64,000 nucleotides of DNA. Source: a virus. The DNA lies in IMG/VR virus record IMGVR_UViG_3300009136_000002, positions 1 to 64,000 of that record. One strand, written 5' to 3'. Both the position numbers and the translations under genes were made by a program. The notes beneath the pieces are model-generated. The model made no database searches. It was not told the DNA's origin and saw only the letters and a program-made list of their open reading frames with translations. Below, in pieces: positions 14,693-17,072 of the stretch. Within the stretch, counting starts at the first letter, position 1, and every line of letters starts with the position of its first letter.

Positions 14693-14962
14693 TTAACCCT
14701 CCAAGATTGCTTTCAATTTTTTCTGATCGTGATCCTTCCTGCTCCAATGCTTGACCTTTGCTTTTATCCTCAACTGTGCTGCATCCTGGTATTTATTCAA
14801 AAGGTCGATGAATTCAGTATAATCTCCCCACCCGCGCTCTTCACCTTGCGGGGGGTTACGATAGCATGGATCACAAAGAGCATATCGTGTAGTCTCGCGC
14901 TGGCAACGCCAACACGGATGGGGAGGATAGTGTGTACGTTTAACTCGCTTTCCAGCCCCCAT
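14693..14962 (-). CDS. Zinc-ribbon protein downstream of Ro60 (89 aa)
   Basis: Two CxxC pairs (CWRCQRET, CDPCYRNP) within the first 35 residues form a likely zinc ribbon. The rest is basic and helical (LRIKAKVKHWSRKDHDQKK), which could contact nucleic acid. It starts 3 bases after the Ro60 stop and so is co-transcribed and probably co-translated with it. It may be an RNA- or DNA-binding partner, but no named family is recognised. Confidence 0.65.
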   Translation of the reverse strand: MGAGKRVKRTHYPPHPCWRCQRETTRYALCDPCYRNPPQGEERGWGDYTEFIDLLNKYQDAAQLRIKAKVKHWSRKDHDQKKLKAILEG

Positions 14963-14965
14963 AGC

Positions 14966-16576
14966 CTACCTGTTTGCTATGAAGTCTCCGATTATGGCTG
15001 GGGCGGCAGTATCAAAGCCAACTACGTCCATCATCCCACCATCGGTAGGATCTGCGATGGAAAACTCGTTGCTTGCCAGCCCAACGACGACTAGCTTGGC
15101 CGGAATATCCATCTTCCGGCGGTAGTCCTCAAGCGCCTGAACCGGATGAACCTTCCCAGCCCAGGTTTCATTATCGGTGTAGATCACGAAGGCATCGGCC
15201 TCGACCTTATTCTTCAAGGCCCAAAGCATAGGCAAGGCGCAATCAGTCCCGCCAAAGGGCATCCCCTGGCAATGCTTAATCACATCGTCAAGCCTCTGAT
15301 GCCTGGACATATTGATCTTGCGAAGCTCATGGGAGAAAGCCATGACCGCGCATTTCTCCTCGGTCTTGAATGTGACCATAGCCATCGCGCAAGCTCCGTC
15401 ACGAGGAGTAAGGTAGGGCATCCCATTGATCCCTTCCCAATCCATAGAGCTAGAAACGTCCAGGCCGATCACAATCCGCTTACCTGTGGGCTCAACATTT
15501 TCAAATGTCTTGTAGAATCCTGCATCCAGGGCATCCACAATATCCGGCACGGCATCCCAATCACCCTTTCCCAGGTAGCCGCGACCTTCGCCATAGATTT
15601 TAAGCGCAGCCAGGACGTTAATCGGATGAATGCGGGCCTCTCGCAACTGATTGGGACTAACGAGCCTGTCCCGAACCCTCTCAATTACGTCCCAATTCCC
15701 TGGAATCAAGAGGCCGACCTTACCCATGTTCCCCAGGTTCCGGATCATGGCGGTCATAGGCATCCTCTGGAGCAAGGCCTCCCATACGTCCTTCTCAGTA
15801 AGGAAGTCAGTAGGGATTGCCTCTCGCGGCAGATTGTAAAGCTGAATGAAGTTGACGATCTCATTCTTGTGCTTTGCTTTCTTGGCGTACTCGAATCCAG
15901 CCACGACATTCAGGGGGTGAGCCCCTCTCCATTTATCAGAGTTGGGAAGCTCAAGCTCCCCGCTCACGATCCATTTATACAGCGCATTCCTGTTTGCATC
16001 GTCGGTCTTGGGGTGAGACAGTCGGAGGAGATCCCTGTGGCTCCAGCCATCACGCTGCTGGTATTTCACGGCCTGATAAGCCAACTTCTCCACATCTTTG
16101 TCCTGATACCAATGCTTGACAGCATTGCGGAGTCCTCGACCCCACCCGCGAAAGGCCTTAACGTACTTGGCGAAATGGAACAGGTGCGTCCCGATCCGCG
16201 CTACCTTTGGCAGAGCGGCCAGGGCCATCGCTCGTGTCTCTTCATCACCCAGGCCAGCGCACATTGCCAGGACGAATAGGGCCGGATCATTCTTAGGGGC
16301 TCGTCCCTTAGTAGAAACGTCCACAACAGCACCGACAACTTTAGGGCCAGCCTTCTCGATCAAACGAGCAACGGCCTTTGCGCTGTCGATGGTTAGCTTG
16401 CGCTCTTTGATGTAGTAGGTTCCGCCTTCCGTTCCCAGCATCAGAAAGCGCATAAGCCGCTCTCCATCACCTACTGGAAACACATACCCACCCGCGCTAT
16501 CCCTTATCATCTGCTTGCCAGGAATCGGCTCGGTCTGTGGGGTTTCCTTTGTCTGAAAATGCTTGGTGTAGTCCAT
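14966..16576 (-). CDS. rsr: Ro60/Rsr orthologue: TROVE plus vWA domain RNA-binding ring protein (536 aa)
   Basis: Ring-shaped RNA-binding protein of the Ro60 family, which in bacteria works with Y RNAs to direct exoribonucleases and bind misfolded RNA. The N-terminal about 340 residues are HEAT-like helical repeats of the TROVE domain (FVLAMCAGLGDEETRAMALA, HLFHFAKYVKAFRGWGRGLR). The C-terminal vWA domain has a complete metal site: GLDVSSSMDW near 370, GGTDCALP near 440 and YTDNETWAG near 465. Length equals that of human and Deinococcus proteins. A strong AAAGGAGGG sits 8 bases before the ATG. Five Y-RNA-like genes lie immediately upstream on the same strand, so RNA and protein would be made from one transcript or locus. 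Identification is confident; its phage-specific purpose is unknown. Confidence 0.95.
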   Translation of the reverse strand: MDYTKHFQTKETPQTEPIPGKQMIRDSAGGYVFPVGDGERLMRFLMLGTEGGTYYIKERKLTIDSAKAVARLIEKAGPKVVGAVVDVSTKGRAPKNDPALFVLAMCAGLGDEETRAMALAALPKVARIGTHLFHFAKYVKAFRGWGRGLRNAVKHWYQDKDVEKLAYQAVKYQQRDGWSHRDLLRLSHPKTDDANRNALYKWIVSGELELPNSDKWRGAHPLNVVAGFEYAKKAKHKNEIVNFIQLYNLPREAIPTDFLTEKDVWEALLQRMPMTAMIRNLGNMGKVGLLIPGNWDVIERVRDRLVSPNQLREARIHPINVLAALKIYGEGRGYLGKGDWDAVPDIVDALDAGFYKTFENVEPTGKRIVIGLDVSSSMDWEGINGMPYLTPRDGACAMAMVTFKTEEKCAVMAFSHELRKINMSRHQRLDDVIKHCQGMPFGGTDCALPMLWALKNKVEADAFVIYTDNETWAGKVHPVQALEDYRRKMDIPAKLVVVGLASNEFSIADPTDGGMMDVVGFDTAAPAIIGDFIANR

Positions 16577-16600
16577 TTCGACCCTCCTTTCAGGGTAAGC

Positions 16601-16668
16601 GGGGCAAGGAGTGAGTAAGGGATCGTTTTCAATTAGCAGTTGAATGATAACCCTAGCTCTTCGGCCCC
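16601..16668 (-). ncRNA. Y-RNA-like gene E (68 nt), closest to rsr
   Basis: Read on the minus strand, the RNA begins GGGGCCGAAG and ends CTCCTTGCCCC, so its ends pair (GGGGC/GCCCC) with a conserved internal loop. A second short helix (GAG...GGG / CCC...CTC) follows, then the shared GGGTTATC and a hairpin TTCAA/TTGAA with a 7-base loop. The GGNCCGAAG ... GTTATC arrangement matches the Ro-binding strand of animal and bacterial Y RNAs. No tRNA-like part. It ends 24 bases before the rsr start codon. Confidence 0.75.
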
Positions 16669-16679
16669 TGGTTAAAAGT

Positions 16680-16738
16680 CGGGCAAGTAGCGAACCAGCA
16701 GCTTTTCCTGATTAGGGTAACGCTGGCTCTTCGGCCCG
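16680..16738 (-). ncRNA. Y-RNA-like gene D (59 nt)
   Basis: Minus-strand ends pair as CGGGC/GCCCG. The Ro-site strand is CCGAAG opposed by CGCTACTT, followed by a 7-pair helix AGCCAGC/GCTGGTT (one G-U) and a small CCTAATCAGG hairpin. The downstream motif is GTTACC instead of GTTATC in the other copies. It is the shortest of the five and has no tRNA-like module. Separated from its neighbours by 11-base linkers. Confidence 0.75.
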
Positions 16739-16749
16739 TATAAAACTGA

Positions 16750-16858
16750 GTGGGCGAGTAGCGTCAAGGGATTGACCCCACCCTCGCGGGTGGCAGACCC
16801 TTTGTTGCTTAGGGGGTCTGTTAGGACTCGAACCTGATAACCCTTAACTTCGGCCCAC
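16750..16858 (-). ncRNA. Y-RNA-like gene C (109 nt) with circularly permuted tRNA-like module
   Basis: Minus-strand ends pair as GTGGGC/GCCCAC. The Ro site CCGAAG faces CGCTACTC, then TTAAGGG/CCCTTGA makes a 7-pair helix ending at GGGTTATC. The inner part reads like a tRNA in permuted order: a T-arm-like AGGTTCGAGTCCT, a 7-pair acceptor-like stem CAGACCC/GGGTCTG closed by a 13-base loop, and a hairpin CCACCC-GCGA-GGGTGG in the D-arm position. This is the topology expected for bacterial YrlA-type Y RNAs, in which the Ro helix takes the place of the anticodon arm and the acceptor is closed. Confidence 0.8.
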
Positions 16859-16870
16859 GCATTTTCGAGT

Positions 16871-17000
16871 TGGGGAGAGTGGTGGGACTCGAACCCACGG
16901 CCTCGCCATTTGCATTGGATAACCCTTAGCCATCGACCCGCAAGCGGGTAAGGAGCGGAAAGGGAATTTTCGCGCTCTAACCGACTGAGCTACACTCTCC
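16871..17000 (-). ncRNA. tRNA-His-like/Y-RNA chimera B (130 nt) with encoded CCA
   Basis: Minus-strand outer body is a near-perfect tRNA: GAGAGTG/CACTCTC acceptor stem, TA at positions 8-9, D-arm GCTC-AGTCGGTTA-GAGC, T-arm GTGGG-TTCGAGT-CCCAC, and an encoded CCA after a C discriminator. An extra 5' G pairs with that C, the G-1:C73 pair that marks tRNA-His. The anticodon arm is missing; about 73 nt replace it, folding as CCCTT/AAGGG, then CC/GG, an internal loop, and ACCCGC-TT-GCGGGT. That insert carries the Ro-site strands GGGTCGATGG and CGCTCCTTACCC plus GGGTTATCC. It therefore looks like an open, unpermuted version of gene C. Not a functional decoding tRNA. Confidence 0.75.
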
Positions 17001-17005
17001 ATAGT

Positions 17006-17072
17006 TGGGCTAGGAATCATAGGACGGATTGGGGCAGGCGCGGCCTGCAGATAACCATCCTACTTCGGCCCA
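17006..17072 (-). ncRNA. Y-RNA-like gene A (67 nt), abutting the recT stop codon
   Basis: Begins one base after the recT TAA on the minus strand. Ends pair as TGGGC/GCCCA; the Ro-site strand CCGAAG faces GATTCCTA, then TAGGA/TCCTA pairs and GGTTATC follows. The apex is a perfect 6-pair hairpin GCAGGC-CGC-GCCTGC. There is no tRNA-like part. Because it abuts the recT coding sequence it must be processed from the recT-rsr transcript or start from a promoter inside recT. Confidence 0.75.

What the first reader, a model, noticed from the sequence alone, without database searches (positions are those of the whole stretch)
14693..17072. Phage Ro60/Y-RNA locus sits inside the recombination operon
rsr and its RNAs are co-oriented with yqaJ and recT, and the first Y RNA begins one base after the recT stop. 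A zinc-ribbon gene follows rsr after 3 bases. This suggests early expression and RNA processing from a single transcript. Possible roles: redirecting host PNPase-type exonuclease, degrading host structured RNA, or protecting phage RNA. The TROVE and metal-site motifs are complete, so the protein is probably functional.
Basis: partly seen in the sequence, partly recalled or inferred. Interest (0 to 1): 0.75.

Follow-up and report, generated by a model that had tools for sequence, protein, structure and literature searches.

The report
Phage Ro60 with tRNA-shaped Y RNAs
A phage carries the gene for the RNA-binding ring protein Ro60 together with five small Y RNAs, one of which is a complete tRNA whose anticodon arm has been replaced by the Ro60-binding hairpin, a layout also found beside Ro60 in cyanobacteria, other bacteria and many other phages, and which looks like the un-rearranged form of a known tRNA mimic.

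Summary
The locus is real: on the minus strand yqaJ-recT-[five Y RNAs]-rsr-zinc ribbon, with the spacings claimed. Phage Ro60 and Y RNAs are a known kind (349 phage records match).

The surprise is in the RNAs. RNA1, RNA4 and RNA5 are minimal Ro stems. RNA3 has the known YrlA layout. RNA2 (17000-16871) is a full tRNA body (acceptor, D arm, T arm, encoded CCA) whose anticodon arm is replaced by the Ro60-binding hairpin capped by a tetraloop. It is a circular permutation of YrlA: native tRNA order, open acceptor, closed Ro stem.

This layout is widespread. DNA patterns and a covariance model find it in cyanobacteria (18 of 194 genomes, all 18 with Ro60 next to it), other bacteria, and about a sixth of viral Ro60 loci. 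The tRNA core pair 15:48 covaries (55 of 60), and 40 of 60 carry the histidine-type G-1:C73, against 26 of 1270 ordinary tRNAs.

The recombination-operon setting is shared only with one close relative. Function (a Ro60 tether to a tRNA-binding partner, by precedent PNPase) is inferred. No held paper describes the un-permuted form, but the key Y RNA papers could not be read.

The parts
14966..16576 (-). rsr: Ro60 (TROVE + vWA), 536 aa, complete MIDAS and conserved Y-RNA-binding residues
   Evidence: Pfam, PHROG and NCBIfam matches and PDB homologues 2nvo, 9nen, 1yvp; invariant residues
17006..17072 (-). RNA1: minimal Y RNA (Ro stem with short hairpin), directly after the recT stop
   Evidence: motif and fold, z -5.2
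16871..17000 (-). RNA2: native-topology tRNA-Y RNA, whole tRNA body with encoded CCA and Ro-binding hairpin in place of the anticodon arm
   Evidence: RF00005 46.9 bits with 65-nt insertion; model R1 111 bits (but it is in the training set); covariation; L004 homologue
16993..17000 (-). RNA2 acceptor 5' strand GGAGAGUG (G-1 to 7)
   Evidence: 8 bp with 16874-16881; compensatory change in L004
16923..16964 (-). RNA2 Ro-binding hairpin: 3'-type strand, CUUG tetraloop (16941-16944), 5'-type strand GGGUCGAUGG..GGG
   Evidence: helices 3 and 4; L004 has a GCAA cap and a C-G to G-C compensatory change
16871..16881 (-). RNA2 acceptor 3' strand, C73 and CCA
   Evidence: sequence; G-1:C73
16750..16857 (-). 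RNA3: YrlA-type (permuted) Y RNA, Ro 5' strand, T arm, closed acceptor hairpin, D arm, Ro 3' strand
   Evidence: RF02553 full-length alignment, 16.2 bits, below gathering 69; MFE has that layout; permuted-layout finder
16680..16738 (-). RNA4: minimal Y RNA
   Evidence: motif and fold, z -3.2
16601..16668 (-). RNA5: minimal Y RNA, 24 nt before the rsr start codon
   Evidence: motif and fold
14693..14962 (-). small zinc-ribbon-like ORF (CWRC..CDPC), 89 aa
   Evidence: 3-base gap to rsr; 60% identical homologue at the same place in L004; no family match
14155..14691 (-). ORF178, unknown, same cluster
   Evidence: 68% identical in L004; structure model unusable, pLDDT 39
17073..18494 (-). recT-like annealase (listed from a TTG; true start probably later)
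   Evidence: PF03837 8.3e-43, phrog_148
18449..19336 (-). yqaJ/RecE-like exonuclease
   Evidence: PF09588 1.4e-28, phrog_434

Best explanation
The phage encodes a Ro60 ring protein and an array of five Y RNAs that share its binding stem. Three are minimal Ro stems. Two carry a tRNA-shaped module in the two possible strand connections: RNA3 is the known YrlA layout (ends at the Ro stem, acceptor closed by a loop) and RNA2 is its circular permutation, in true tRNA order (ends at the acceptor with CCA, Ro stem closed by a tetraloop). Shown by sequence and comparative evidence: the protein family, the five motifs, the RNA2 fold, the link of this RNA class to Ro60. Inferred: the array is cut from one transcript, RNase P and tRNA 3' processing act on RNA2, Ro60 binds the stems, and the tRNA-shaped end tethers Ro60 to a partner that recognises tRNA shape (by precedent PNPase, giving decay of structured RNA). 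Because YrlA has a closed acceptor, the function common to both forms should depend on tRNA shape, not on a charged 3' end. Tandem copies of native RNAs (two in L318, up to five in G005) can be read as permuted copies in between, which offers a simple route between the forms.
For: Rfam tRNA hit spanning an insertion. 25-sequence alignment: 90.8% of cells paired, 23 of 30 pairs with double changes, covariation 0.566 against 0.196 shuffled; the outer Ro helix, not used in selection, has double changes in 7 of 7 pairs. Levitt pair 15:48 G-C 38 and A-U 17 of 60, 0 of 20000 shuffles. Link to Ro60: 11 of 11 viral records with the RNA encode Ro60, while L049, judged by its retained anticodon stem to be an intron-bearing tRNA before the test, does not; in 194 cyanobacterial genomes all 18 with the RNA have Ro60 on the same contig and strand. 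In 76 viral loci collected by Ro60 protein alone, 12 carry it at 64 bits or more, all on the Ro60 strand. Precedent for tether, PNPase and tRNA mimicry: PMC8394870, PMC7790460.
Against: No expression, processing or binding data. Unconstrained folding of RNA2 prefers another structure by 2.3 kcal/mol. Acceptor, T arm and D loop were selection criteria for many of the 25 sequences, so their pairing counts are inflated. RNA3 is far below the Rfam YrlA gathering score. PNPase has not been shown here as partner of any phage Ro60.
Confidence: 0.75

Rival explanations
1. One reading: an early recombination-operon RNA machine in which Ro60 and Y RNAs redirect a host exonuclease, degrade host structured RNA or protect phage RNA.
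For: Co-orientation and tight spacing; order kept in L004; exonuclease or recombinase neighbours in FuzzBuster and Forza.
Against: Neighbourhood not kept in other Ro60 loci; L004 has a ~118-nt gap; other phages have Ro60 among tRNA or tail genes; no promoter evidence.
Confidence: 0.3
2. The tRNA-shaped RNAs are decoys: a tRNA body without an anticodon loop binds, but is not cut by, host tRNA-cleaving defence nucleases, with Ro60 stabilising the decoy.
For: RNA2 keeps the tRNA core but has no anticodon loop; for Salmonella YrlA a competitive-inhibitor role has been suggested (PMC7790460).
Against: The same RNA is common in cyanobacterial chromosomes beside Ro60, so it is not phage-specific; no defence-family match in the cluster.
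Confidence: 0.15
3. RNA2 is mainly a processing signal: a real tRNA body in the middle of the array is cut by RNase P and tRNA 3' enzymes and so frees its neighbours.
For: Spacers of only 5-13 nt between the RNAs; full acceptor, D and T arms.
Against: Cyanobacterial loci hold several in tandem and others hold one alone, so punctuation does not explain conservation of the Ro stem.
Confidence: 0.15
4. RNA2 is charged by HisRS, or occupies it, through G-1:C73.
For: G-1:C73 in 40 of 60 native RNAs against 26 of 1270 ordinary tRNAs; encoded CCA in window, L004 and L261a. That G-1:C73 is the main bacterial HisRS identity element is general knowledge, not tested here.
Against: A third lack it; YrlA has no free 3' end; sequences are related, so the count is not independent; the pair could simply lengthen the acceptor stem.
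Confidence: 0.1
5. RNA2 is an ordinary tRNA gene with an intron.
For: Rfam calls it tRNA with an insertion.
Against: No anticodon stem; the insertion is the Ro60 stem with its own covariation; capped by different tetraloops; always beside Ro60; the probable intron tRNA L049 has no Ro60.
Confidence: 0.02

Closest known systems
YrlA RNA (Rfam RF02553; Salmonella, structure 6CU1)
   Same: Ro-binding stem with GGNCCGAAG, tRNA-like module with T arm, D arm and acceptor stem, encoded beside rsr
   Different: YrlA has its 5' and 3' ends in the Ro stem and a closed acceptor, and is a circular permutant of tRNA (PMC11472068). RNA2 has the ends at the acceptor, CCA, and a closed Ro stem. RNA3 has the YrlA layout but scores only 16.2 bits.
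Ro60/Rsr of bacteria and phages (PF05731 + PF25045, phrog_850, NF041674)
   Same: full-length domains, MIDAS, Y-binding residues; 349 phage records and 272 IMG/VR loci carry relatives
   Different: nothing in the protein itself stands out; it misses the NCBIfam Rsr cut-off (616.7 of 900 bits)
tRNA-His
   Same: G-1:C73 and tRNA core
   Different: no anticodon arm; 65-nt insertion with the Ro stem
Circularly permuted tRNA genes
   Same: permutation of tRNA halves
   Different: those are processed into decoding tRNAs (PMC3978253, known from its abstract only); here neither form has an anticodon

Membership tests
Ro60/Rsr | TROVE and Ro60 vWA domains over full length | tested here: met
Ro60/Rsr | MIDAS residues DxSxS, T, D | tested here: met
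   D372, S374, S376, T443, D467 invariant
Ro60/Rsr | binds Y RNA | not testable with these tools
   needs binding assay; K170, R174, H187 conserved
Y RNA | encoded beside rsr, same strand | tested here: met
Y RNA | Ro stem GGNCCGAAG with GUUAUC and complementary strand | tested here: met
   all five, RNA2 as variant GGGUCGAUG and RNA4 with GUUACC
YrlA (RF02553) | tRNA-like T, acceptor and D arms | tested here: met
   RNA2 and RNA3
YrlA (RF02553) | 5' and 3' ends pair in the Ro stem | tested here: not met
   RNA2: ends pair in the acceptor; RNA3 meets it
YrlA (RF02553) | Rfam gathering score 69 bits | tested here: not met
   RNA3 16.2 bits; none of the others listed
YrlA (RF02553) | modified by TruB and DusA | not testable with these tools
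   needs RNA from infected cells
tRNA | acceptor, D and T arms, U8, A14, 15:48 pair | tested here: met
   (A14 was a search criterion)
tRNA | anticodon stem-loop | tested here: not met
   replaced by the Ro hairpin

The most novel reading that the evidence does not exclude
Native-topology tRNA-Y RNAs are an undescribed class of Ro60 RNA, derived from a tRNA-His-like gene whose anticodon arm became a Ro60 arm. They are matured as tRNAs and perhaps histidylated, and the known YrlA mimics arise from them by tandem duplication and circular permutation, repeatedly in phages and bacteria.
Probability: 0.25. Interest if true: 0.9.

Novelty: new variant of a known kind. Interest (0 to 1): 0.7.

Why it matters
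Bacterial Y RNAs mimic tRNA, but in the known (YrlA) layout the chain order is permuted, which leaves their origin open. A Y RNA in true tRNA order, next to a permuted one in the same array and widespread beside Ro60, makes the origin of the mimicry testable. It also gives Y RNAs with an open, possibly CCA-bearing acceptor end, so tRNA enzymes (RNase P, CCA-adding enzyme, HisRS, EF-Tu) become concrete candidates for contact with Ro60. In this window ARAGORN misses it and Rfam calls it a tRNA with an insertion.

Tried and rejected
A loose D-arm/T-loop pattern in viral contigs returned mostly tandem tRNAs. Many hits of the tight hairpin pattern in genomes were ABC-transporter-like coding sequence, set aside by eye. 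An intron-bearing tRNA reading was rejected for RNA2 but kept for L049. ARAGORN found no tRNA. ORF178 gave two relatives, both the same phage, and an unusable model. No defence family in the cluster. Promoter and terminator scans were at chance level. The Ro60 tree (quick method) does not resolve how often the two RNA layouts interconverted: about 6 changes, 2 forced by starred branches, with long branches meeting. The papers Chen 2014, Wang 2018, Sim and Wolin 2018 and Sim 2020 are not held.

Full report
The observation. The window is 64 kb of a 75,155-bp virus record. On the minus strand lie yqaJ (18449-19336), recT (ending 17073), an RNA array, rsr (14966-16576), a zinc-ribbon-like ORF (14693-14962, 3 bases after rsr) and ORF178 (14155-14691, 1 base later). 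The array holds five Ro-stem motifs. GGGCCGAAG occurs four times in the window on both strands, all here. Two other metagenome contigs carry the array without a change.

The protein. It matches TROVE and the Ro60 vWA domain, with D. radiodurans Rsr and animal Ro60 as nearest solved structures over nearly the full length. The MIDAS residues and K170, R174 and H187 are invariant among 13 phage Ro60s; that K170, R174 and H187 are Y-RNA contact residues of animal Ro60 is my own knowledge. Phage Ro60 is common: 349 annotated phage records, mostly actinophages, and 272 IMG/VR loci.

The RNAs. RNA1 (17072-17006), RNA4 (16738-16680) and RNA5 (16668-16601) are minimal Ro stems. RNA3 (16857-16750) aligns to the whole Rfam YrlA model, though at only 16.2 bits, and its minimum-energy fold has the YrlA layout: Ro 5' strand, T arm, closed acceptor hairpin, D arm, Ro 3' strand. 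RNA2 (17000-16871) is matched by the tRNA model over its full length at 46.9 bits with a 65-nt insertion in place of the anticodon arm. The insertion is the Ro stem turned round: 3'-type strand, tetraloop, 5'-type strand, GUUAUC. RNA2 and RNA3 therefore have circularly permuted layouts of the same parts.

Is RNA2 real? The 76%-identical relative L004 has the same RNA with compensatory changes in the acceptor (GAGAGUG/CACUCUC to GAGACUG/CAGUCUC) and the Ro stem (CCCUU/AAGGG to CCGUU/AACGG), and a GCAA cap in place of CUUG. A distant phage, L012 (46% Ro60 identity), has one too. Patterns in viral contigs and in 84,980 bacterial and archaeal genomes brought further members in phages, Cyanobacteria, Myxococcota, Chloroflexota, Gemmatimonadota, Abditibacteriota and one Firmicute. 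On a 25-sequence alignment 90.8% of cells are paired and 23 of 30 pairs show double changes; every slid control is far lower. Acceptor and T-stem pairing were partly selection criteria; the outer Ro helix was not, and 7 of 7 of its pairs show double changes. The tRNA tertiary pair 15:48, not selected, is G-C or A-U in 55 of 60 members, never reached in 20000 shuffles. A free fold of RNA2 prefers another structure by 2.3 kcal/mol, so the support is comparative, not energetic.

Does it belong to Ro60? Eleven of eleven viral records with the RNA encode Ro60, while L049, which I had judged to be an intron-bearing tRNA, does not. In 194 cyanobacterial genomes, 18 carry the RNA at 64 bits or more and all 18 have Ro60 on the same contig and strand; Ro60 is strong in 22. 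Thirteen further model hits there are ordinary 76-nt tRNAs at or below 61.2 bits, so I read matches below about 62 bits as uninformative. Several cyanobacteria hold two to five copies in tandem. In 76 viral loci collected by the Ro60 protein alone, 12 carry the native form, all on the Ro60 strand. The simple layout finder sees YrlA order in 7 of these loci, but it was stricter than the model, so the ratio of the two forms is not settled.

Histidine-like end. Position -1:73 is G:C in 40 of 60 members against 26 of 1270 ordinary tRNAs in the same loci. The members are related, so the test value overstates independence. In several phage YrlAs the closed acceptor has the same C..G pair around a GNRA loop (CGAAAG, CGCAAG). 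The pair may serve histidylation, or just lengthen the stem.

Context. The yqaJ-recT link recurs only in L004 among 92 Ro60 loci compared. Named phages place Ro60 beside tRNA genes, tail genes, an integrase, or in two cases exonuclease and recombinase genes. So the operon idea is a lineage feature, though an early-region position is plausible.

Evolution. Tandem native copies (L318) can be read as permuted copies in between, which suggests tandem duplication as the step from native to permuted or back. On a quick Ro60 tree the two labels need about six changes, two of them forced by well supported branches. Direction cannot be told.

Literature. The held texts describe YrlA as a Ro stem formed by the two ends plus a tRNA-like domain, a TruB and DusA substrate, and a PNPase tether (PMC8394870), and as a circular permutant of tRNA in three dimensions (PMC11472068). 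None mentions an un-permuted form. From memory, the abstract of Chen 2014 reports likely Y RNAs near Ro60 in more than 250 bacterial and phage species, at least one per species with a tRNA-like domain; that paper and three others could not be read, so priority is open.

Verdict. The locus is confirmed and, as a phage Ro60/Y RNA locus, of a known kind. The un-permuted tRNA-Y RNA is a new variant as far as the held literature shows, is widespread, and is the part worth following.

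Noticed in passing
window 32467-42981 (+): A 3504-aa ORF made largely of Ser/Cys/Phe repeats (SSSSSFSSSCSSS) broken by folded-looking segments; a likely structural or tail protein of odd composition.
   Followed up: no
window 43019-48193 (+): Cluster of sugar-related genes next to the terminase, including a UDP-GlcNAc 2-epimerase (PF02350, 9.2e-71); several neighbours have no Pfam match.
   Followed up: partly
window 241-9432 (+): 3063-aa protein with no Pfam match.
   Followed up: partly
window 13058-13552 (-): Cupin-domain gene (phrog_7851, named cysteine dioxygenase) downstream of the Ro60 cluster.
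   Followed up: no
L049 8857 (+): A phage tRNA with a retained anticodon stem and a long insertion (about 60-100 nt), probably a true intron.
   Followed up: partly
L332 689-838 (+): A cyanobacterial tRNA-Y RNA whose T loop is interrupted by a short repeat-like insertion.
   Followed up: no
L036 2467-2595 (-) and L335 (G070): Native tRNA-Y RNAs sitting among ordinary tRNA genes.
   Followed up: no
L378, L364, L372, L407, L409: Native tRNA-Y RNAs in which the cap of the Ro hairpin is enlarged by a further element of tens of bases.
   Followed up: no
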